Shown: one piece after another, positions 11,974 through 30,831 of the stretch
How positions within the stretch are numbered: position 1 is the first letter of the stretch
Layout: the number at the start of each line of letters is the position of its first letter
Assembly (NCBI GenBank): GCA_003599275.1
Contig: QZJG01000044.1
Span: forward strand, 1-64,000
Direction of reading: 5' to 3'
Source: Nitrospiraceae bacterium
GTDB taxonomy: Bacteria > Nitrospirota > Thermodesulfovibrionia > UBA6902
Length of the DNA stretch: 64,000 bases
Notes under the pieces: model-generated
Databases searched by the model: none
What the model was told of the DNA's origin: nothing
Seen by the model: the letters and a program-made list of their open reading frames with translations, nothing else
Made by a program: the position numbers and the translations under genes

Positions 11974-12281
11974 CGATGGTCAATCAGAAAATCATTTCAA
12001 ATATTTTGAAGCCTCTCGTAATATCAGGAGTTTATAAGGATGAAACGGTGGCTTTAAAAGGTATTGTTGCAGATTATATGCAACGGAGAATAGAAACATA
12101 CGTATCTGTCATAAAAAAAATGGAGTCTAAATATGGTAAAGATTTTGTTGCTGTAAGTAAAAAGATCAAAAAAAAGGCAACAATAGAAGTTGAAGACGAC
12201 TGGATGGAATGGAAGGCTGCAATAGTAATGAGTCAGGCATGGCATCAAGCATTAAAAAAACTCCTCAATAATGCTGCATAA
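11974..12281 (+). CDS. putative antitoxin partner (TumA-like) of DUF6516/TumE-type TA pair
   Basis: GAGAGGAG RBS before ATG; MVNQKIISNILKPLV...; overlaps the TumE-like gene. Confidence 0.55.
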
Positions 12282-12648
12282 ATTTGATATTTATAAAATA
12301 ATTGCAGCCCTCAGGAAAATTTCCATAGTATCAAATGTTGAGATATTACTTATTGATGAAATCGAACATCGTGGATTCTATAAACTGCGGGGTACTCTTG
12401 TTCCTTCCAAATTCAAGCTTGACATAAAATATATCAGCACAGAAAAAGATATCTTGTATTCATACCAGCTATATACAGACGAAGCGGTTGCGAGATGGGA
12501 TAACGAACCTCATTATCCCGGTTTTAATAACTATCCACATCATTTACATTATAAAGAAAATATTGGAGCATCCGTACTTTCTGGAAATCCGATACATGAT
12601 GTTAATAAGATATGCTCATTCGTTAAAGAAATAATAGGAAACATTTGA
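12271..12648 (+). CDS. TumE-like (DUF6516 family) toxin
   Basis: YSYQLYTDEAVARWDNEPHYPGFNNYPHHLHY: RWDN-PHxP-x-PHHxH signature. Confidence 0.7.
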   Translation: MLHKFDIYKIIAALRKISIVSNVEILLIDEIEHRGFYKLRGTLVPSKFKLDIKYISTEKDILYSYQLYTDEAVARWDNEPHYPGFNNYPHHLHYKENIGASVLSGNPIHDVNKICSFVKEIIGNI

Positions 12649-17313: not shown

Positions 17314-19020
17314 TTGCTGGAAATGACAAACGATTATAAAAAAAACAGGATCGCAATTATGCTGCTTATCTTGATAGTGGCGCTTGGTTTCTTTTTCAGG
17401 GTTATTTATGTATTAAATCATTTTTCACAGGATGATGAAGCGATTCACTTATTAAACCGTCTGGATGAATATCAGAAGATGGAATATTTTATTAATATAG
17501 GGCATGTCAATGAAAGGCCGCTGAATGATAGTTCGAAATATATAAAGCTGTTTCCAAACAGTCCATATTCTTATGAATTCATAATTACCCCTGAAATGAT
17601 AAATGGCAATCCTGTCTTATATTCTTTGAAGACAGCATACCAGATGACATATGCGCCTTTTTACAGCTTTATGGCCGGTTTTATTATCAACGACAACGCC
17701 CCCTATGAGAAAAGATTAATGCAATTGAGATTCCCCAATTTAATTTTCTCTGTTCTATCGCTTATTTTGTTTGCGCTTCTGATGTATAGGTTGGATGCAG
17801 GCTTAATATCGGGGCTGACGCCGGCATCATTGCTGAGCGTTGCAATTATGCCGAATGTCTATGCTTCACAGGGCATCCCATATGGTTTTTTAATATTTCT
17901 CATAATACTCCAGTTATTATTTATCCAGCATATTGAATCCCGTGGAAATATTAATTTGAGGGAAGCTGTTCTTGCAGGTTTATTGTCAGTCGTAACCGGT
18001 TATTCCCACTGGATGATGTTTTTGCCTAACGTAATGTTTTACCTCTCTCTGCTTGCAATCTTGATTTTTAACAAGAAAATCAATAAGGAGAAAATCATTC
18101 AATTGGTCATATCATTTACGTCCTACATGGTTATCATGATGCCCGGGATTTTCCTGTTTGTCCTGAAAAGAGCTGGAGAGGCAGCTAACAGAAAAGATTT
18201 TTACCCTATTGAAATTAATACGGATTTGCCGTTCAATCTGACTAACCGTCTTTTTTTAATAATTAAATCGAATTTAAGCATCTTGCCTGAAGAATATTTA
18301 TTGAATACAATATTAATATACGTCCTTATTGGGATTATTTTGGTTGGCGTTATGGGTATGTTTTTTCGTGGGTGTGCAAAAACAAAATTTACATTGTTTT
18401 ATTCAATCGGTGTCATCAGTCTGTATTGCGTTGCAAGTTTTATGAAATTGGTGCCTTTGACGCCGACACGCCATACGATATTTTTTATTCCCCTGTTGCT
18501 TTATATGATAAGTAGCGGAATCGGCCATATGAAATATGTATGGGGAAATCATCGACAGAAGCTGGAATATGGTGTGTATTTTATTACAGCAGTGATAATT
18601 TTAACCGCCTTGGTCAACTTTCCTGATAGTTACAGAGACAGAACGAAAAAGATTAATAATATTACGATTCAGGCAATAGAAGATATGGCTGTAAAATATA
18701 AAGCTCAATGCGTGGTTGTTTTAAACTCGACAGAAGCGTTCCTTGCACTCAGAGAAAAAATAAAAATACCTGTCAGATTTTATTCTCCCCCCAATGATTA
18801 TGGGGATTTGGAGGAGTTCGATTCGTTATTGTTTGTAAGCACCACAAAAAAATTAGCCTCTGACAACAAAGATTTTCTATCTTTAGTAAAAAGTCTGGAT
18901 TCAAATTTTATAATTTCCCGGGAAATTGCTGATGAAGGAATATCAATGGACGTAGTCTCGGAGTTTAATCTTACGCATGTATTCAATCACTTTTATGTAT
19001 CTTTTGTTCATCGCTTATAA
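17314..19020 (+). CDS. membrane glycosyltransferase (GT39/ArnT-like)
   Basis: 568 aa polytopic with acidic motif SQDDEAIHLL in the first loop. Confidence 0.65.
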   Translation: MLEMTNDYKKNRIAIMLLILIVALGFFFRVIYVLNHFSQDDEAIHLLNRLDEYQKMEYFINIGHVNERPLNDSSKYIKLFPNSPYSYEFIITPEMINGNPVLYSLKTAYQMTYAPFYSFMAGFIINDNAPYEKRLMQLRFPNLIFSVLSLILFALLMYRLDAGLISGLTPASLLSVAIMPNVYASQGIPYGFLIFLIILQLLFIQHIESRGNINLREAVLAGLLSVVTGYSHWMMFLPNVMFYLSLLAILIFNKKINKEKIIQLVISFTSYMVIMMPGIFLFVLKRAGEAANRKDFYPIEINTDLPFNLTNRLFLIIKSNLSILPEEYLLNTILIYVLIGIILVGVMGMFFRGCAKTKFTLFYSIGVISLYCVASFMKLVPLTPTRHTIFFIPLLLYMISSGIGHMKYVWGNHRQKLEYGVYFITAVIILTALVNFPDSYRDRTKKINNITIQAIEDMAVKYKAQCVVVLNSTEAFLALREKIKIPVRFYSPPNDYGDLEEFDSLLFVSTTKKLASDNKDFLSLVKSLDSNFIISREIADEGISMDVVSEFNLTHVFNHFYVSFVHRL

Positions 19021-19118: not shown

Positions 19119-21239
19119 ATGTTGAACAGGCAGATTATTAAACACAATATCAGGGCGCTGCTGGCTACACGGCATGGTATGTTTTTCCTGCTGGTTCTGA
19201 TGATAAAGGTGATCGCAGCTGTTCTTGTCAAACCGGAACTGAATACCCAATGGTTTATTCCTTTCATAAAAAGTTTTGTTAATTCAGGTTATCAGAATCC
19301 GTGGGACACCTTTTTGTCTGCAAACGGCTCTGTTAAAGCATTTCCTTACGGAACAGGCATGTTGCTGATCTTTGCGGGGCCTTTTAGTTTGAAAGCCCTG
19401 GTTGCGGGCGTTTCGTCAGATGTTATAAGCAGGATGGATGTCTTCCTTTTCAAACTTCCTCTCATCGCAGCTGACATAGGGATTCTTTATGTGCTTGTCC
19501 GGATATTACAGCTCGACGCGTGGAAATCCATATTCATTTACTGGTGTTCTCCCGTTGTTTTTTATATAATCTACGTCCACGGCCAGCTCGACGTTATTCC
19601 AATGATGCTTATGTTCGCATCAATCGTAACGCTGATTAATAACAGATACTTGCCCTCCGCGCTAATTCTGGGATTTGGTCTGGCCAGCAAAGAGAATCTT
19701 TTTTTTGCCGTTCCTTTTTTTCTTGTTTACATCTTCAGAAAAGAGAATGACTGGATAAAGGCCGGAGTCTATTTATTAATAGCGGCCGCAGCCTATGGCT
19801 TATTGATCGGCGTTGTGTTTTTTTCACATGGTTACCAGTTAATGGTTCTCGGAGCAGAAGAACGCACATGGGTCATGTTGAGCAAAATAACTGTCGGGAA
19901 TTTCCAAATTTATCTGGTTCCTCTTGCTGTTGCCTTTCTCTATCTGAAATTCAGCCGTTACAATAAGGTCAATAACGAAATTTTAATAATGTATATCGGC
20001 ATTGGATTTACCATCCTCCTGCTGTTGATCCCTTCCAGCGCGCCCGGATGGTATATGTGGCTTGTCCCGTTTATCTGTTATTATTTCCTGAGCATGCGCA
20101 GGTCTCACAACTTCTTGCTTTTTCTATTTTCAGGACTGTTTTTCTCTTTCTTTCTTCTGAAAGTTCCTTATCCCTTGAATATGATAGACCCGAATCTCAA
20201 GAGCGTTTTTCAAAATCTTACGGATGGCCTCCTTTCCGATTCGCAGATGAAAATATTGATCGATCTCAATTTTACCTTTTTGCAGGGGACCATCGCTTAT
20301 ATCGCATTCAACATGTATGTGCACGGCGTTAGAAGCAACAGGATATATAAAGAAAGAAAGACCCCTATAATAATGGGCATAAGCGGCAACAGCGGGGCAG
20401 GGAAAGATACCCTCTGTAATTCGTTGAAGGGCCTTCTAGGCAATGATAATATCCTTCAGGCGGACGGGGACGACCATCACAGATGGGAGCGGGGGCATCA
20501 CATGTGGAAGGCATACACTCATTTACACCCGAAGGCGAACGATCTGTTTCTTCAGTTCGACAATACCAGGTCTCTTAAAAGCGGAATGAGCGTTTCACGG
20601 AGGTTCTATAATCATGAAACCGGGACTTTTACAGAGCCCCAACCGGTAAGAGCCAGCAAGTATATCTTTATAAGCGGACTGCATTCATTTTATCTCCGGA
20701 ATATGCGGGAACTCATCGACATAAAAATCTTTCTTGATACCGAGGAGCAGTTAAGAAATCTTTGGAAGCTCAAGCGTGACTCCGAACAGAGGGGACATTC
20801 CAAAGAAAGGGTACTGGAAAGCATAAAGGCAAGGGAAGAAGATGGATCAAAATACATCGAACCGCAGAAAGAATTTGCAGACCTGCTCATCTGTTATGAG
20901 CCGTGCCGCCCTCCCGACGGCTATGGAATCAGTAATACAATTGAGCTGAAAGTGAGTTTTTGCCTCGACAACAGCATCAATCTTGAAGGCCTGGCAGTCG
21001 GACTGGGAGCGCTTCCGTCTTTAAAAGTCATCCACAGCTACGACGACATGAACAGGCAGTCCCTTTCGGTGCAAGGTGAAATATTTCCCAAGCAGTTGAG
21101 GGAAATCGCCTTACAGACGATACCGAATCTCGATGAAATAATCATACCTCAGGCCCGATTTGAAGAAGGCCTGAAAGGCATCGTCCAGATCATGGTCCTT
21201 TGCATGATTAGCCACGTTAAAACATACGACAAGCTATGA
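19119..21239 (+). CDS. fusion: GT-C membrane glycosyltransferase plus C-terminal uridine kinase-like P-loop kinase
   Basis: N-terminal polytopic part (YVHGQLDVIPMML, GLASKENLFF); then GISGNSGAGKDTLCNSL Walker A, LQADGDDHHRWERG, SRRFYNHETGTF, FISGLHSFYL. Confidence 0.8.
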   Translation: MLNRQIIKHNIRALLATRHGMFFLLVLMIKVIAAVLVKPELNTQWFIPFIKSFVNSGYQNPWDTFLSANGSVKAFPYGTGMLLIFAGPFSLKALVAGVSSDVISRMDVFLFKLPLIAADIGILYVLVRILQLDAWKSIFIYWCSPVVFYIIYVHGQLDVIPMMLMFASIVTLINNRYLPSALILGFGLASKENLFFAVPFFLVYIFRKENDWIKAGVYLLIAAAAYGLLIGVVFFSHGYQLMVLGAEERTWVMLSKITVGNFQIYLVPLAVAFLYLKFSRYNKVNNEILIMYIGIGFTILLLLIPSSAPGWYMWLVPFICYYFLSMRRSHNFLLFLFSGLFFSFFLLKVPYPLNMIDPNLKSVFQNLTDGLLSDSQMKILIDLNFTFLQGTIAYIAFNMYVHGVRSNRIYKERKTPIIMGISGNSGAGKDTLCNSLKGLLGNDNILQADGDDHHRWERGHHMWKAYTHLHPKANDLFLQFDNTRSLKSGMSVSRRFYNHETGTFTEPQPVRASKYIFISGLHSFYLRNMRELIDIKIFLDTEEQLRNLWKLKRDSEQRGHSKERVLESIKAREEDGSKYIEPQKEFADLLICYEPCRPPDGYGISNTIELKVSFCLDNSINLEGLAVGLGALPSLKVIHSYDDMNRQSLSVQGEIFPKQLREIALQTIPNLDEIIIPQARFEEGLKGIVQIMVLCMISHVKTYDKL

Positions 21240-22003
21240 TGAAGGAATTAAAGCTCCCTGAGGCCATCCTGCTTGACATGGATAATTCAATATACGAATA
21301 CAGGCCTTGCCACGAAGCGGCACTGGCGAAAGTAGAGTCAATTTTGAAAGAAGCTGTTTGTATGGAGCCCGCGGTCTTCCGCGAGAAATACATGGACGCC
21401 CGCAAACAGATCCATTCCAGACTCAGGAATACCGCTTCATCACATAACAGGCTTCTTTATTTCCAGCGTCTCCTGGAACTGGGAGGGCATGGGATGAAAA
21501 TAGGCCTTGCCTCCCGTCTTTATGAAATTTACTGGGAAACATTCATGAACAATATAAGAATATTTGAAGGCGTGTTCAATTTTCTGGAACATGCGAGGAT
21601 GATGAATATCCCTGTCGTCCTCGTAACTGATTTGACAGCGGACATACAGTTCAGGAAGATCACGAGGCTGGGACTGGAGAATGCGGTTGATGCTGTTGTG
21701 ACTTCAGAAGAAGCCGGGGCTGAGAAACCCTCAAGGGAAATTTTTGAGCTGGCACTTAAAAAAACCGGCTGTGCTGGAAAGATGATATGGATGATCGGCG
21801 ACAGCCTGACAAAAGATATAGCCGGCGGAAAGGCGATAGGCGCGGTCACGTTTCTGAGAGTGCAGGACGGAGAATCTCCGTGCCTTTCCGGTATAAATCC
21901 GGACATAGTATTTAAATCATTTCATGAGCTGACCTGTATCCTTGCCGGATGTGAAGCGCGCAGCCTTACATGTCGGCAACCATTGAAAGAGGGTTTGCCA
22001 TGA
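21236..22003 (+). CDS. HAD superfamily hydrolase
   Basis: AILLDMDNSIYEYRP, VVLVTDLTADIQ, EKPSREIFELALKK, MIWMIGDSLTKDIAGGKAIGA. Confidence 0.9.
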   Translation: MMKELKLPEAILLDMDNSIYEYRPCHEAALAKVESILKEAVCMEPAVFREKYMDARKQIHSRLRNTASSHNRLLYFQRLLELGGHGMKIGLASRLYEIYWETFMNNIRIFEGVFNFLEHARMMNIPVVLVTDLTADIQFRKITRLGLENAVDAVVTSEEAGAEKPSREIFELALKKTGCAGKMIWMIGDSLTKDIAGGKAIGAVTFLRVQDGESPCLSGINPDIVFKSFHELTCILAGCEARSLTCRQPLKEGLP

Positions 22004-23172
22004 AGAAAGACATGAATGAACTCATTCGCATGTCCAGGTTTTATGGCGAGAACACCGACATGATACAGGCAGGCGGAGGCAACACCTCATTTAAGGCCGG
22101 TGACGTCATGTGTGTGAAGGCATCGGGAAAAAACCTGAAGGAAGTTCAAAGCGAAGAAGATTTTGTGACAGTTGATTTGGTCGGGATAGGGTCTATATTG
22201 GCGGATAACACGCTGTCCGGGTTGGACGACAATGAAAGAGATGTAATTATAAGTACAAAGCTTCTTGCCGCAAGGACTGAAGCCACTGTCAATCGCCCAT
22301 CGATAGAGACTTTTCTGCACGCACTTATTGACAGAAAGTTCGTGGTGCACACTCACCCGGTATATGTTAATGCCATGACATGTTCTGCAGACGGACATGA
22401 GATTGCTTTAAAGCTTTTCAGCAGATCGGATTATGTATGGATACCATACAAGAAACCGGGATATCCGGTAGCGTGTGTCCTCGATGAAGCGATATCAGGG
22501 CATTACACGGAGTTCGGGACCAGGCCGGTCCTTGTATTCATGCAGAATCACGGCCTCATCGCGGCAGGAGACAGTTTTGAGGAGATAAACGGCCTGACTG
22601 AAAAAACGATCAGTCCGATAAGGGAATATTTCAGCGGGTATGATGCGCCGGATAAGGATGCTGAAATAAATACTGTGAACGGGAAAATAATGACCGTCCT
22701 TGAAAAGGCTTTAAACGAGCGTTTGCCCGGTGCAGGGTCCGATCTGAAATGGAGCCGATGTCCCTACGTAACTATGCTTTCCAAAGGCAATCTGAAAAAC
22801 ATAGCCTTAAGCGGGGCATTTTCTCCTGATCATATCGTGTACTGTGGGGAAGAGCCCTTGCTGCTTGGCGCTGAAGATTCTTTAAAGGCAGTGTCCGGCA
22901 AGGTCTCGGATTTCACTGAAAGACTGGGGTATGGACCGAGATACTTCATTGTGTCCGGGGAAGGGGTTATCATCCTCGGCAGCAATGAAAGGGAGATTGC
23001 CGCAAGGGAGGAAATATTGCGGACACATATAAAGACGCTTATGCTTGTGCTTCGCAAAAGCCGTCCCGTTTTTCTTGGCGGGGATGAATGCAGATATCTT
23101 GCGCACTGGGAGTCCGAGAAATTCAGGCAGAAGCTGCTGAAAAAAGCCGGCAGCGATGAGGCAAGGAGATAA
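22000..23172 (+). CDS. class II aldolase/adducin family protein (track start 21970)
   Basis: IQAGGGNTSFKAGDVMCVKASGKNLKEV, SIETFLHALIDRKFVVHTHPVYVNAMTCS, FMQNHGLIAAG. Confidence 0.88.
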   Translation: MKKDMNELIRMSRFYGENTDMIQAGGGNTSFKAGDVMCVKASGKNLKEVQSEEDFVTVDLVGIGSILADNTLSGLDDNERDVIISTKLLAARTEATVNRPSIETFLHALIDRKFVVHTHPVYVNAMTCSADGHEIALKLFSRSDYVWIPYKKPGYPVACVLDEAISGHYTEFGTRPVLVFMQNHGLIAAGDSFEEINGLTEKTISPIREYFSGYDAPDKDAEINTVNGKIMTVLEKALNERLPGAGSDLKWSRCPYVTMLSKGNLKNIALSGAFSPDHIVYCGEEPLLLGAEDSLKAVSGKVSDFTERLGYGPRYFIVSGEGVIILGSNEREIAAREEILRTHIKTLMLVLRKSRPVFLGGDECRYLAHWESEKFRQKLLKKAGSDEARR

Positions 23173-23176
23173 CTAA

Positions 23177-23956
23177 TTGAAGATCGTCATTCCAATGTCG
23201 GGGACCGGGCAGCGTTTTCTGAAAGCGGGATACAAAGACATAAAACCGCTTATACCCGTTGACGGCAAACCGGTTATCGAACATGTCATCGGAATGTTTC
23301 CAGGGGAAAAGGATTTTATATTCATCTGCAATAAAGAACATATTGAAACAACAAACATAACGGATGTCCTGCAGCGGATAACGCCTTCCGGCACAATTGT
23401 TCCGATAGCTCCGCATAAACTGGGGCCGGTGCATGCTGTCCTTCAGGCAGCAGAATTGATTTGCGATGACGGGCCTGTTCTGGTCAACTACTGTGATTTT
23501 TCGGCCTGGTGGGACTATCATGATTTCAAGGCAGCAGTCGCGCGCAATCAATGTGACGGTTGCGTGCCTGCTTATACGGGGTTCCATCCGCATCTTCTTG
23601 CGGGCGGCTTTTATGCGGGAATGAATGTTGACGCTCAAAACAATATGATTGAGATCAGGGAGAAGTATTCTTTTACGGAAAATAAAATGGATTCATTTCA
23701 TTCCTCGGGAAGTTACTATTTCAGGAAAGGGGCTTTCGTAAAAAAATATTTCCGGATGCTCATGGACAAGGACATAAATATCAACGGGGAATATTATGTG
23801 AGCATGGTCTATCAGCTCATGAAAGAAGATGATCTTAATATTTATGTTTATAATCTGGAGCATTTTCTGCAATGGGGGACGCCTGAAGACCTCGAAGAAT
23901 ATGTCTACTGGTCCGAGTATTTCAGAGAAAAACAGAGGGCGGGGATTTTGATATGA
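23177..23956 (+). CDS. sugar nucleotidyltransferase (NTP-transferase fold), paralogue 1
   Basis: MKIVIPMSGTGQRFLKAGYKDIKPLIPVDGKPVIEHV; LQWGTPEDLEEY. Confidence 0.88.
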   Translation: MKIVIPMSGTGQRFLKAGYKDIKPLIPVDGKPVIEHVIGMFPGEKDFIFICNKEHIETTNITDVLQRITPSGTIVPIAPHKLGPVHAVLQAAELICDDGPVLVNYCDFSAWWDYHDFKAAVARNQCDGCVPAYTGFHPHLLAGGFYAGMNVDAQNNMIEIREKYSFTENKMDSFHSSGSYYFRKGAFVKKYFRMLMDKDININGEYYVSMVYQLMKEDDLNIYVYNLEHFLQWGTPEDLEEYVYWSEYFREKQRAGILI

Positions 23957-24729
23957 CCAACCTGATACCGATGGCCGGAGCAGGCGCGAGATTTTCCGCC
24001 GAAGGATATCAAGACCCTAAGCCGCTTATTGAGGTGTCCGGCAAGCCGATGATAATACAGGCCTGCAATTCACTCCCCCCGGCAGACCGCTGGATTTTTG
24101 TATGCCGGAAGGAACATATAGAAAACTATCATATCGACAGCGTTCTGAAGAGATCGATCACCGGCAGCGAAATCATTACGGTTGATTATCTGACGGATGG
24201 GCAGGCAAGCACCTGTCTGCTTGCTGAACACCTTCTGGACAGGAAGGGACCGCTCCTTATAGGCCCGTGCGACAACGGCATGACATGGAATAGGGGAATG
24301 TATGATTCGCTGATGATGAATCCTGAAGTTGATGCTTTAATATGGACGTTCAGAAACAACGTGACCGTTAAAAGGAATCCGAAGATGTACGGATGGGTGG
24401 CTGTCGATAAGGACAACAATGCGTTGAAGGTCTCATGCAAGATACCCATAAGCGACAACCCGGTCAAAGACCACGCGATTGTCGGGACTTTTTATTTCCG
24501 GAAGGCGGGATATTTTATCGATGGTGCGAAAAGGATGATCGACAAGGACCGCAGGATCAACAATGAGTTCTACGTCGATGAGGCAATGAACGAACTCATT
24601 GAAGCCGGGATGAAAGTGAAGGTCTTTGAAATCGATAAATACATCTGCTGGGGCACTCCCAATGATCTGAGAGTTTATCAGTACTGGGAGAGCTATTTCA
24701 GGAAATTGCTCGTTCATGGTCAATTATGA
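23953..24729 (+). CDS. sugar nucleotidyltransferase (NTP-transferase fold), paralogue 2
   Basis: MTNLIPMAGAGARFSAEGYQDPKPLIEVSGKPMIIQA; ICWGTPNDLRVY. Confidence 0.88.
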   Translation: MTNLIPMAGAGARFSAEGYQDPKPLIEVSGKPMIIQACNSLPPADRWIFVCRKEHIENYHIDSVLKRSITGSEIITVDYLTDGQASTCLLAEHLLDRKGPLLIGPCDNGMTWNRGMYDSLMMNPEVDALIWTFRNNVTVKRNPKMYGWVAVDKDNNALKVSCKIPISDNPVKDHAIVGTFYFRKAGYFIDGAKRMIDKDRRINNEFYVDEAMNELIEAGMKVKVFEIDKYICWGTPNDLRVYQYWESYFRKLLVHGQL

Positions 24730-24757
24730 ATTTAAACTGTTAAAGGGGGGGAATTGC

Positions 24758-25471
24758 ATGGGTGTAGATTCGATACTTGGGAAGATGTATTTTTTGCAGA
24801 ACATGGTGATAGACGTTCTTTCAAGTGTCCATCCTTCGATTGAACATAATATCACGAAGATACAGGCGTTAAAGAAGGCATTTTTCCATTGTTCACTTGA
24901 GAAACTTGAAGGGGATTATATGGAATACGGCGTGTTTGAGGGCACCTCTTTCATTTCAGCCTTTATGAACGATTACAGGATCAACAAGTCCCGCACCAAC
25001 CGGAAATATATAGGATTTGATTCTTTTGAGGGGTTTAAATTCAGTGAAGATATCGATAAACATCCTTTTTTCAGGGAAGGAGATTTCAAGAGCAGTTATG
25101 ACTTCGTGCAGAAGCGCGTGAGTAAAAAACTGAAAGACCGCGCTGAATTCCGTCTGATAAAAGGCTACCTCGAAGATACGCTGAAAGATAAGACCCCCAT
25201 GGATTTCGGGGTTGAAAAGATCGCGGTATCATTGATCGACTGCGACCTGCATGTCCCGGCGAGGATGGCCCTGAACTTCATGAAGGGTTCCCTGCAGGAA
25301 GGCTCGATAATCATCCTTGATGATTATTTTGCGTATAAAGGGAGCATGGAAAAAGGAGTAGCAGGCGCCTTTGAGCTTTTCAAGGACGCGAACAGACACA
25401 TTGAGTTCAGAAGGATGTTTGACTACGGGTACGGCGGTGCCGGTTTCATCGTATCAAAGATACATAAATAA
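24758..25471 (+). CDS. TylF/MycF-like O-methyltransferase (track start 24716)
   Basis: YGVFEGTSFISAFM, IGFDSFEGF, SLIDCDLHVPARMALNFMKGSLQEGSIIILDDYF; AAAGGGGGGG RBS. Confidence 0.8.
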   Translation: MGVDSILGKMYFLQNMVIDVLSSVHPSIEHNITKIQALKKAFFHCSLEKLEGDYMEYGVFEGTSFISAFMNDYRINKSRTNRKYIGFDSFEGFKFSEDIDKHPFFREGDFKSSYDFVQKRVSKKLKDRAEFRLIKGYLEDTLKDKTPMDFGVEKIAVSLIDCDLHVPARMALNFMKGSLQEGSIIILDDYFAYKGSMEKGVAGAFELFKDANRHIEFRRMFDYGYGGAGFIVSKIHK

Positions 25472-25489: not shown

Positions 25490-26200
25490 ATGCTTGAAAC
25501 GAAACTTTCCGTAATCGTGCCCTGCTACAATGAAGAAAAAAACATCCCTCTTATGCTGGACCGTTTCGGAAAGGTCATAAAACGGAAAGATATCGAAGTG
25601 ATTTTGGTAAATAACGGGTCCATGGACAATTCGCAGCATGTTATGGAATCCCTGCTGCCCGGTCATCCTTTTGCGCGTATATGCAAAGTGGAAAAAAACC
25701 AGGGCTACGGGTTCGGGATACTCTCCGGCCTTCGTTCGGCAAAGAGTGAATATCTTGCGTGGACGCATGCCGACATGCAGACGGACCCGAGTGACGTCGT
25801 CAGGGCGCTGGAGATTGTCGAATCATCCGCTGGTCCGCGTAACATGTATGTAAAAGGCAGAAGGCAGGGGCGTCCTCCTGCGGATGTTTTTTTTACCTGG
25901 GGGATGGGGGTGTTTGAGTCTGTGTGTCTCGGTGTTTCACTAAGTGACATTAATGCACAACCAAATGTTTTCCATCGTTCTTTTTATGAATTATGGAAAG
26001 ACCCCCCCTATGACTTTTCTCTTGATTTGTATGCTTTTTATATGGCGCGAAAGAATGGCTTTAAAGTAATACGTTTTCCGGTTTTATTCCCTAATCGGAT
26101 TCACGGTCACTCCCACTGGAATTTTGGATTGAAATCAAAATGGAAGTTCATCAAGAGGACCCTCGATTTCAGCATTAAATTAAAAAAGAGACTGAAATAG
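25490..26200 (+). CDS. GT2 family glycosyltransferase
   Basis: LSVIVPCYNEEKNIPLMLDRF ... YLAWTHADMQTDPSDV. Confidence 0.92.
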   Translation: MLETKLSVIVPCYNEEKNIPLMLDRFGKVIKRKDIEVILVNNGSMDNSQHVMESLLPGHPFARICKVEKNQGYGFGILSGLRSAKSEYLAWTHADMQTDPSDVVRALEIVESSAGPRNMYVKGRRQGRPPADVFFTWGMGVFESVCLGVSLSDINAQPNVFHRSFYELWKDPPYDFSLDLYAFYMARKNGFKVIRFPVLFPNRIHGHSHWNFGLKSKWKFIKRTLDFSIKLKKRLK

Positions 26201-26794
26201 ATGCAGGTAATTGTCCATAGAAGAAATACGATCGACGAATTAAGGTCAACGCCTGCCAGGTATGGAGTGGAGGTGGATATCAGGAGCTATGGTGATCATT
26301 TAATAGTTCACCATAATCCGTTCACTGATGCTGTTGATTTTGAGGAATGGATCAAGTTTTATGACCATAAGATATTGATACTGAATATTAAGGAAGAAGG
26401 AATAGAAGAGCATGTAAAAGATATTATGATATCCCATGGAATTAAAGATTTCTTTTTCCTGGACCTGTCATTTCCGTTCTTGGTGAAGATGGTAAATTCC
26501 GGTGAGAAACGGGTCGCGCTTCGGTTTTCTGAATATGAATCAATAGAAACAGTGCTTACATTTGCACACAAAGCCGACTGGGTATGGATTGATACATTCT
26601 CAAGGCTTCCGCTTGACCCGCAATCATATGCACTTCTTAGGAAGCATGATTTTAAGTTGTGTCTGGTGTGCCCCGAGCGGTGGAACAGACCTGATGACAT
26701 AAGGAGATATAAAGACTATCTTTCAGATAAGCAAATGTATCTGGATGCAGTAATGGCTACGCCGGAATTTGTTGATTTATGGGAGTCAAATTAA
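26201..26794 (+). CDS. glycerophosphodiester phosphodiesterase-like TIM-barrel protein
   Basis: VIVHRRNTIDELRSTPARYGVEVDIRSYGDHLIVHHNPF: short GDPD-like H-R...E-D...HH-P pattern. Confidence 0.65.
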   Translation: MQVIVHRRNTIDELRSTPARYGVEVDIRSYGDHLIVHHNPFTDAVDFEEWIKFYDHKILILNIKEEGIEEHVKDIMISHGIKDFFFLDLSFPFLVKMVNSGEKRVALRFSEYESIETVLTFAHKADWVWIDTFSRLPLDPQSYALLRKHDFKLCLVCPERWNRPDDIRRYKDYLSDKQMYLDAVMATPEFVDLWESN

Positions 26795-29727: not shown

Positions 29728-30831
29728 TTGATTAATAAAACCAAAATACATTTTTATGGGAGATACAATCTTGCGGATTTAAGCAGTGTATTTAATATCC
29801 TGAAAGATATAAATGAGTATGAGACAACTTATGATTTTTATAAAGACAGAAAATCTTTTCCTTATTACTCCTTACCTGATTCAGTTAATTTTATTTTAAG
29901 TGAAAACAATGGTCCTGATTATTGTAGAGGGAAGAATATTGATATCAGCCATGGTTACGGTCCTGTTGTAGGATTTAGCAAAGATAAAAACTCATGTAAT
30001 AATTTAATTAATAATTTTTTTTCAATTTGTGTTTATGGTAAATTCCAAAAAGATATTTTACTTGATATCGGATATCCAGAGGAAAAAATAATCATTTTTG
30101 GTATGCCGTATTCGATTGATCTGCTAAAAAAAACCGATGTTGATGATAGAAATAAATTTCTTTTATCAAAAGGATTAAATCCTGAAAATAAAACATTATT
30201 ATATGCACCAACCTGGAACCAGTGGTTTCCTAATAATATTACTGAAAAAGTATTGTTTAAATTTTTTAATATAAAAGAAACTACACGTCACTTTTTTGAA
30301 TTATGGTGGCAAGATGGGAAAGAATACATCCGTGTTGAAAAACTATGTAAGTTTTGTATGGAAAACGGCATAAATTTTATTGTTAGAATGCATGAAAGAC
30401 AACGTTATGATAAAGATTGGTTGGAAGTGTATTCTAATATTTTTGATAAATACAATGTAACGCGACACTATATGGATGATGATATCAACAGTTTACAGTA
30501 TCTCAAATATTCTGATGTTTTGTTGGGAGATATATCTACTATTAATACATATTATTATGTAATGAATAAGCCGGTTGTTCATCTTAATAGAGGAAAACCA
30601 TTTAATCATAAACTAAAAACAATTATATCATCAATGGATATCAAAGATAGACCAGGGTATATAGTTGATGACTTTGAAGAAATGCTTGAAGCGATAAAGG
30701 ATTCATTTCAACATCCGGACAGATTTGAAAAACAGAGAACCTTAACCGTAAAGAAGTATATAGATTTCACTGGTGATGAATGTATTGATGTGATAAAAAA
30801 AGAATTTAAAAGAATTTTTCAACTGAAATAA
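29728..30831 (+). CDS. CDP-glycerol glycerophosphotransferase-like protein (TagB/TagF family); TTG start
   Basis: DIGYPEEKIIIFGMPYSIDLL, KTLLYAPTWNQW, FIVRMHERQ, YSDVLLGDISTINTYYYVMNKPVVHLN. Confidence 0.78.
   Translation: MINKTKIHFYGRYNLADLSSVFNILKDINEYETTYDFYKDRKSFPYYSLPDSVNFILSENNGPDYCRGKNIDISHGYGPVVGFSKDKNSCNNLINNFFSICVYGKFQKDILLDIGYPEEKIIIFGMPYSIDLLKKTDVDDRNKFLLSKGLNPENKTLLYAPTWNQWFPNNITEKVLFKFFNIKETTRHFFELWWQDGKEYIRVEKLCKFCMENGINFIVRMHERQRYDKDWLEVYSNIFDKYNVTRHYMDDDINSLQYLKYSDVLLGDISTINTYYYVMNKPVVHLNRGKPFNHKLKTIISSMDIKDRPGYIVDDFEEMLEAIKDSFQHPDRFEKQRTLTVKKYIDFTGDECIDVIKKEFKRIFQLK

What the first reader, a model, noticed from the sequence alone, without database searches (positions are those of the whole stretch)
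19119..24729. Candidate undescribed pathway: kinase fusion, HAD phosphatase, class II aldolase and twin nucleotidyltransferases
Five tightly packed, mostly overlapping genes encode: kinase-GT fusion, HAD hydrolase, class II aldolase, nucleotidyltransferase 1 and 2. Knowledge: class II aldolases make or cleave short ketose/aldose phosphates, HAD enzymes dephosphorylate sugar phosphates, and NTP-transferases activate sugars or polyols. Inference: the set could build an unusual nucleotide-activated short-chain sugar or polyol for the surface polysaccharide.
Basis: inference. Interest (0 to 1): 0.7.

Follow-up and report, generated by a model that had tools for sequence, protein, structure and literature searches.

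The report
Mobile surface-sugar cassette with phosphoribulokinase-like kinase
Bacteria from about a dozen phyla, and plasmids including one in E. coli, share an apparently undescribed set of seven enzyme units that looks like a self-contained kit for making an unusual short-chain sugar and adding it to the cell surface, but the sugar itself is not yet known.

Summary
Profile searches show a conserved cassette: [GT-C membrane transferase fused to a phosphoribulokinase(PRK)-like kinase] – HAD phosphatase – class II aldolase – nucleotidyltransferase 1 + 2 (one fused protein almost everywhere, split here) – GtrB-like GT2 – GDPD-fold protein, often with GtrA. It occurs in three other Nitrospirota genomes, in 28 named loci from about a dozen phyla, and on plasmids of E. 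coli, Azospirillum and Hirschia. The window therefore also contains cassette members at 25490-26794. Components show strongly correlated divergence. The kinase keeps every literature-mapped PRK/Ru5P residue checked (30/30) but has lost PRK's 'EGLH' glutamate (30/30). The HAD's best model is RuBP 5-phosphatase, below cutoff. The aldolase keeps all zinc ligands. No Rubisco was found in this 89%-complete genome. Best reading: a three-component periplasmic glycosylation system carrying its own donor pathway, starting from a pentulose phosphate, with an aldolase step and NDP activation. The product is inferred, not shown; aldolase direction and the GDPD and second NTP steps are open. No description was found in the paper library searched.

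The parts
19119..21239 (+). GT-C-like membrane transferase (res. ~1-410) fused to PRK-like kinase (res. ~411-706)
   Evidence: PF00485 1e-35 at 418-593; NCBIfam PRK07429 phosphoribulokinase 190 bits (cutoff 236); PDB best hits are PRKs. About 10 TM, K/R-rich C-terminal loop, invariant D119/D158 in 23 relatives (crude). Fusion present in all 28 loci and 3 plasmids.
21236..22003 (+). HAD-IA phosphatase
   Evidence: Best model NF053830 RuBP 5-phosphatase 181 bits (cutoff 330), next 104; all 18 cassette HADs match it; catalytic D14, D16, T134, K164, D189 invariant in 18.
22000..23172 (+). class II (zinc) aldolase with ~180-residue C-terminal extension; longest ORF starts 21970, start at 22000 preferred
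   Evidence: PF00596; E113, H127, H129, H194 invariant in 19/19 plus 4/4 Myxococcales; AlphaFold model pLDDT 86, Foldseek best 3m4r, then FucA.
23177..23956 (+). nucleotidyltransferase 1 (N half of the usual NTP1::NTP2 fusion)
   Evidence: GxGxRF...KPL motif, D107, E162-K163 invariant in 23; PDB profile best 4evw, then GlmU.
23953..24729 (+). nucleotidyltransferase 2 (C half of the usual fusion)
   Evidence: GxGxRF...PKPL, D105, K161, D207 invariant in 22; PDB profile best 4evw, then GlmU.
25490..26200 (+). GT2, DPM1/GtrB-like polyprenyl-phosphate glycosyltransferase candidate (HADxQTDP motif)
   Evidence: PF00535 1e-20; 42-65% identity across 20 cassette loci; follows NTP1::NTP2 in 22 loci; GtrA between them in several.
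26201..26794 (+). GDPD-fold (glycerophosphodiester phosphodiesterase-like) small TIM barrel, 197 aa
   Evidence: H6-R7, E24-x-D26, H38-D39, K64 (nearly) invariant in 21; AlphaFold pLDDT 94, Foldseek top hits all GDPD; directly after GT2 in 18 loci.
17314..19020 (+). multi-spanning membrane protein, probable second membrane glycosyltransferase; optional associate
   Evidence: Homologues lie directly beside cassette genes in L030 (Omnitrophota) and L040 (Nitrospirota).
24716..25471 (+). TylF-like methyltransferase inserted between NTP2 and GT2; not part of the conserved core
   Evidence: PF05711 3e-14; not found as a conserved neighbour in other loci.

Best explanation
A self-contained, horizontally mobile glycosylation cassette that both makes and transfers an unusual sugar. 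Inferred order: (1) the PRK-like kinase phosphorylates C1 of a pentulose 5-phosphate (Ru5P or a close relative) to a 1,5-bisphosphate; (2) the HAD removes the distal phosphate, leaving a 1-phosphate; (3) the zinc aldolase acts reversibly at the C3-C4 bond (DHAP plus a glycolaldehyde-type aldehyde), so reshaping or shortening the carbon skeleton; (4) NTP1::NTP2 activate one or two intermediates as NDP-X; (5) GT2 moves X to undecaprenyl phosphate, GtrA (where present) flips it, and the GT-C domain transfers it to a glycan outside the membrane. Shown here: cassette, families, order, active sites, shared history. Inferred: substrates, order of steps 3-4, the product, and the role of the GDPD-fold protein.
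For: Ordered cassette in other Nitrospirota and about a dozen phyla and on three plasmids, stand-alone in E. coli. Pairwise Mantel correlations of component distances r=0.64-0.91, all p=0.001. Kinase: D, H, R, Y, H, K, R of the PRK base/Ru5P/ATP site conserved in 30/30 with the spacing of M. hungatei PRK (H55, R59, Y98, H100, K151, R154; PMC5241800), so the substrate probably carries a terminal phosphate. HAD best model is RuBP 5-phosphatase in the window and matches all 18. Aldolase zinc site intact. NTP1::NTP2 plus a class II aldolase recur without the kinase in two cyanophages, whose hosts have PRK (host PRK from general knowledge). No Rubisco in own genome. GT-C/GT2/GtrA trio matches three-component systems (PMC11127046).
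Against: PRK's EGLH glutamate is S/A/C/V in 30/30, so the kinase may not be a Ru5P kinase. HAD and aldolase scores are below curated cutoffs. Aldolase is absent locally in L023 and L030, HAD in L025 and the Myxococcales loci, so neither is strictly required there. A ketose 1-phosphate is not an anomeric phosphate, which fits a GtrB-like GT2 poorly. GDPD and the second NTP domain have no assigned step. No biochemistry exists.
Confidence: 0.55

Rival explanations
1. Aldose-first (heptose-like) route: the kinase makes an aldose 1,5-bisphosphate (ribose or another pentose), the HAD removes the 5-phosphate, and the NTP makes a true NDP-pentofuranose, as HldE/GmhB/HddC do for heptose; the aldolase is an auxiliary or epimerising step.
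For: Kinase-HAD-nucleotidyltransferase logic; GT2 of the GtrB type wants an anomeric NDP-sugar; pentofuranoses are known cargo of three-component systems (PMC11127046).
Against: The kinase active site is that of PRK, which acts on an open-chain ketose C1-OH; the aldolase would be superfluous yet is present in nearly all loci; known pentofuranose systems use PRPP plus a UbiA-type synthase, not seen here.
Confidence: 0.2
2. Catabolic or supply route only: PRK, RuBP phosphatase and ketose-1-phosphate aldolase convert Ru5P to DHAP and glycolaldehyde, as in the haloarchaeal non-carboxylating pentose bisphosphate pathway, and glycolaldehyde or DHAP feeds the activated unit.
For: Three enzyme families in gene order match that chemistry (PMC9700705); HAD best model is the haloarchaeal RuBP 5-phosphatase.
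Against: The haloarchaeal aldolase is a short FucA, not this type; no glycolaldehyde reductase or R15P isomerase travels with the cassette; always linked to NTP, GT2 and GT-C.
Confidence: 0.1
3. Polyol-phosphate or phosphodiester decoration: NTPs make CDP-glycerol-like or CDP-polyol donors and the GDPD-like protein edits the diester, so that the cassette adds a phospho-polyol rather than a glycosyl unit.
For: GDPD fold and metal-site residues; a C1-phosphate made by a PRK-type kinase is a primary alcohol phosphate; GDPD-HAD-NTP-NTP quartets recur elsewhere.
Against: No reductase or TagF-like transferase is conserved with the cassette; GT2 and GtrA point to Und-P-glycosyl chemistry.
Confidence: 0.1
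4. Chance assembly of unrelated genes in an O-antigen region.
For: The window region is rich in glycosyltransferase and methyltransferase genes.
Against: Conserved order, universal GT-C::kinase fusion, plasmid-borne stand-alone copies, correlated divergence.
Confidence: 0.01

Closest known systems
Three-component extracytoplasmic glycosylation systems (GtrABC; Citrobacter youngae pentofuranose system, GT136; PMC11127046)
   Same: Und-P sugar synthase, flippase and GT-C transferase module; GtrA and GtrB-like GT2 adjacent; GT-C with Und-P donor logic.
   Different: Carries its own donor biosynthesis, with kinase fused to the GT-C; no PRPP/UbiA-type synthase seen; product unknown.
Phosphoribulokinase (archaeal/cyanobacterial type; PMC5241800)
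   Same: All tested catalytic and Ru5P/ATP-binding residues with identical spacing.
   Different: Glu of EGLH replaced by S/A/C/V; fused to a membrane GT; genome has no Rubisco detected.
Haloarchaeal non-carboxylating pentose bisphosphate pathway (RuBP phosphatase, Ru1P aldolase; PMC9700705)
   Same: Bisphosphate to 1-phosphate to aldolase enzyme classes; HAD nearest to its RuBP 5-phosphatase.
   Different: Aldolase of another subfamily; starts with a PRK-like kinase; tied to nucleotidyltransferases and glycosyltransferases.
ADP/GDP-heptose pathway (HldE or HddA, GmhB, HddC)
   Same: Kinase, HAD, nucleotidyltransferase logic.
   Different: Different kinase and nucleotidyltransferase families; extra aldolase and GDPD; comparison rests on general knowledge.
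RhaD-ADH/YuxG-type N-terminal aldolase domains and 3m4r
   Same: Closest aldolase relatives.
   Different: No dehydrogenase domain; about 180-residue C-terminal extension without a structural match; scores far below cutoffs.

Membership tests
Phosphoribulokinase | Catalytic Asp, His45/55, Arg49/59, Tyr98, His100, Lys165/151, Arg168/154 | tested here: met
   30/30 kinases, same spacing as MhPRK.
Phosphoribulokinase | Glu of the EGLH segment (EG present in 6gve and 9qko) | tested here: not met
   S, A, C or V in 30/30.
Phosphoribulokinase | Curated score (NF005655, 236 bits) | tested here: not met
   190 bits.
Phosphoribulokinase | Ru5P kinase activity | not testable with these tools
   Needs purified protein.
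RuBP 5-phosphatase (NF053830) | Score above 330 bits | tested here: not met
   181 bits, yet the best model by 76 bits for the window protein.
HAD-IA phosphatase | DxD, T, K, D catalytic motifs | tested here: met
   18/18.
Zn-dependent class II aldolase | Glu plus three His metal ligands and fold | tested here: met
   23/23; Foldseek to FucA-type aldolases.
Rhamnulose/fuculose-1-phosphate aldolase (catabolic) | Curated RhaD/FucA model scores, catabolic neighbours | tested here: not met
   82 bits against cutoff 568 for TIGR02632; neighbours are GTs and NTPs.
Three-component (Gtr-type) glycosylation system | GtrB-like GT2 plus GT-C in one operon | tested here: met
   GT-C assignment by topology and sequence only.
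Three-component (Gtr-type) glycosylation system | GtrA-type or other flippase | tested here: inconclusive
   GtrA beside GT2 or NTP in 5 loci and 3 plasmids; none in the window cassette.
GDPD family | GDPD TIM-barrel fold with HR/ExD/HD metal site | tested here: met
   no Pfam hit, activity untested.
Haloarchaeal non-carboxylating pentose bisphosphate pathway | R15P isomerase and glycolaldehyde reductase partners | tested here: not met
   No such conserved neighbours; genome-wide search not run.

The most novel reading that the evidence does not exclude
Ribulose-1,5-bisphosphate (or a pentulose bisphosphate) used outside CO2 fixation and nucleoside salvage: a PRK derivative fused to a membrane glycosyltransferase starts a new nucleotide-sugar pathway, which yields a previously unknown short ketose-derived glycan unit exported by a self-contained, horizontally transferred cassette.
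Probability: 0.35. Interest if true: 0.85.

Novelty: new variant of a known kind. Interest (0 to 1): 0.62.

Why it matters
If right, it adds a new entry point (pentulose phosphate through a PRK-like kinase) to bacterial nucleotide-sugar metabolism, and a three-component glycosylation system that brings its own donor. It also exposes a possible misannotation: these genes are labelled 'phosphoribulokinase' or 'uridine kinase', which could be mistaken for Calvin-cycle capacity. The cassette sits on an E. coli plasmid from a stool isolate and in the cultured bacteria Fusibacter bizertensis, Azospirillum brasilense and Hirschia baltica, so it can be tested directly.

Tried and rejected
Rhamnulose/fuculose catabolism: rejected on scores and context. 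Calvin-cycle role: no Rubisco large subunit in the 88.6%-complete genome. Aldolase elsewhere in the genome that lacks it locally (G131): only a RhaD-ADH-type aldolase was found; HAD not searched. Full-text searches for the gene combination found no description. The PDB profile search gave nothing for the GDPD-like protein; only fold comparison placed it. Pfam gave nothing meaningful for it or for the GT-C half. Cyanophage S-SM2 and Bellamy islands were read for a clue to the sugar: they share only NTP1::NTP2 and a shorter class II aldolase, so the product stays open. Myxococcales aldolases first looked degenerate by score but keep all metal ligands.
Full report
OBSERVATION. The ORFs at 19119-21239, 21236-22003, 21970-23172, 23177-23956 and 23953-24729 are all present on the + strand. 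Pfam and NCBIfam give: PRK/uridine kinase family at residues 418-593 of the first protein, HAD, Aldolase_II, and two nucleotidyltransferases, the second weakly. The first ~400 residues of protein 1 have no Pfam match; hydropathy gives about ten transmembrane helices, a long loop after helix 1, two invariant Asp (D119, D158) and a K/R-rich C-terminal end that fits a cytoplasmic kinase (crude method). The aldolase probably starts at the ATG at 22000, which gives a 4-nt ATGA overlap with the HAD gene.

CONSERVATION. Searching the order and class showed the kinase domain in only a few genomes: G007, G131 and G143 besides the window. G007 and G143 have GT-C::kinase-HAD-aldolase-NTP with both nucleotidyltransferases fused in one 529-531 aa protein, and both also carry a GT2 and a ~197-aa protein homologous to window 25490-26200 and 26201-26794. 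In the class sample the fused kinase occurs in 4 genomes, and the 197-aa protein and NTP1 in those same 4 plus G041; by simple counting, finding all 4 among 5 of 229 has a chance of about 5e-8. A scan of 84,980 species' contigs with the kinase alignment gave 38 loci; 28 of them (L023-L050) hold the GT-C::kinase, 27 with at least one further cassette member. Record titles name Nitrospirota, Clostridia, Cloacimonadota, UBP17, Bacteroidetes, Omnitrophota, Obscuribacterales and other Cyanobacteriota, Gastranaerophilales, Myxococcales, Oligoflexia, other Proteobacteria and Actinobacteria. Pair counts: aldolase-NTP 25, kinase-HAD 22, NTP-GT2 22, HAD-aldolase 20, GT2-GDPD 18, mostly overlapping or a few bases apart. 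Component distance matrices correlate (21 pairs, r 0.64-0.91, p 0.001 each). Some of that correlation is expected from shared species descent, but the patchy distribution (7 of 396 phylum genomes, two of them stand-alone kinases) makes transfer as a unit the likelier cause.

MOBILITY. Full sets lie on an E. coli IncR plasmid with an IS26 copy nearby (NTP1::NTP2, GtrA, GT2, GDPD, GT-C::kinase, HAD, aldolase, membrane protein), found in 2 of 5,426 E. coli genomes, both on plasmids, and on plasmids of Azospirillum brasilense and Hirschia baltica.

WHAT THE ENZYMES ARE. Kinase: nearest solved relatives are phosphoribulokinases. In 27 cassette kinases plus the three plasmid ones, positions D35, H38, R42, Y81, H83, K134 and R137 are invariant, with exactly the spacing of the M. 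hungatei residues reported to bind Ru5P and ATP (PMC5241800). The Glu of PRK's EGLH segment is never present. So the substrate very likely carries a terminal phosphate, but identity with Ru5P is not shown. HAD: the best curated model for the window protein is haloarchaeal RuBP 5-phosphatase, and all 18 match it, below the cutoff. Aldolase: zinc site complete in 23, class II fold, nearest 3m4r and then FucA types. NTPs: both halves keep signature and metal Asp; nearest solved 4evw and GlmU. GDPD-like: model pLDDT 94 with GDPD structures on top. GT2: DPM1/GtrB-type motif HADxQTDP; GtrA next to it in five loci and on the plasmids.

MECHANISM. GtrA-GT2-GT-C is the composition of three-component periplasmic glycosylation systems (PMC11127046). 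Here the GT-C is fused to the kinase, and the operon also encodes phosphatase, aldolase and two nucleotidyltransferases, so it most likely makes its own donor. The three carbon-handling enzymes agree on a ketose 1-phosphate: PRK-type C1 phosphorylation, distal dephosphorylation, and a ketose-1-phosphate type aldolase, the same chemistry as the haloarchaeal pathway in PMC9700705. The genome has no Rubisco detected, so a bisphosphate would not serve CO2 fixation. Two cyanophages carry NTP1::NTP2 (48% identical) with a class II aldolase but no such kinase; their hosts have PRK (general knowledge), which fits but does not prove a PRK product as input.

LIMITS. A ketose 1-phosphate is not an anomeric phosphate, so the GT2 chemistry is unexplained unless the skeleton is changed first; that is why an aldose (heptose-like) rival is kept at 0.2. 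The aldolase is missing in L023 and L030 and the HAD in L025 and Myxococcales, so each may be replaceable. GDPD and the second NTP have no assigned step. No biochemical data exist, and the literature check covers only the open-access library (ten searches).

VERDICT.

Noticed in passing
L043:5577-5586 and L044:10581-10590: Both Gastranaerophilales kinases are frameshifted at a run of ten C inside the kinase domain; possible phase variation of a surface-glycan gene, or an assembly error.
   Followed up: partly
L076:10641-13791 (G041, same genus) and P. aeruginosa plasmid NZ_CP017294.1 114837-117670: A related quartet of GDPD-like protein, HAD (other subfamily) and two nucleotidyltransferases without PRK-like kinase or aldolase; probably a wider undescribed module family.
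   Followed up: partly
L080:10001-13309 (Synechococcus phage S-SM2) and L085:8001-11303 (phage Bellamy): NTP1::NTP2 48% identical to the cassette enzyme, followed by another gene and a short class II aldolase, in phage sugar islands.
   Followed up: partly
L077:6022-14984 (E. coli plasmid NZ_CP145712.1): Complete cassette on an IncR plasmid from a human stool isolate, also in a bullfrog isolate, with an IS26 copy nearby.
   Followed up: partly
G165:C1:608876-609412 and G166:C1:901147-901683: Stand-alone ~295-aa PRK-like kinases in two related genomes, one with an in-frame TAA.
   Followed up: no
window 12271-12648: TumE-like toxin domain (PF20126, 8e-12) upstream of the polysaccharide region.
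   Followed up: no
window 29728-30831: CDP-glycerol glycerophosphotransferase-like protein (PF04464, 3e-12) in the same polysaccharide region.
   Followed up: no
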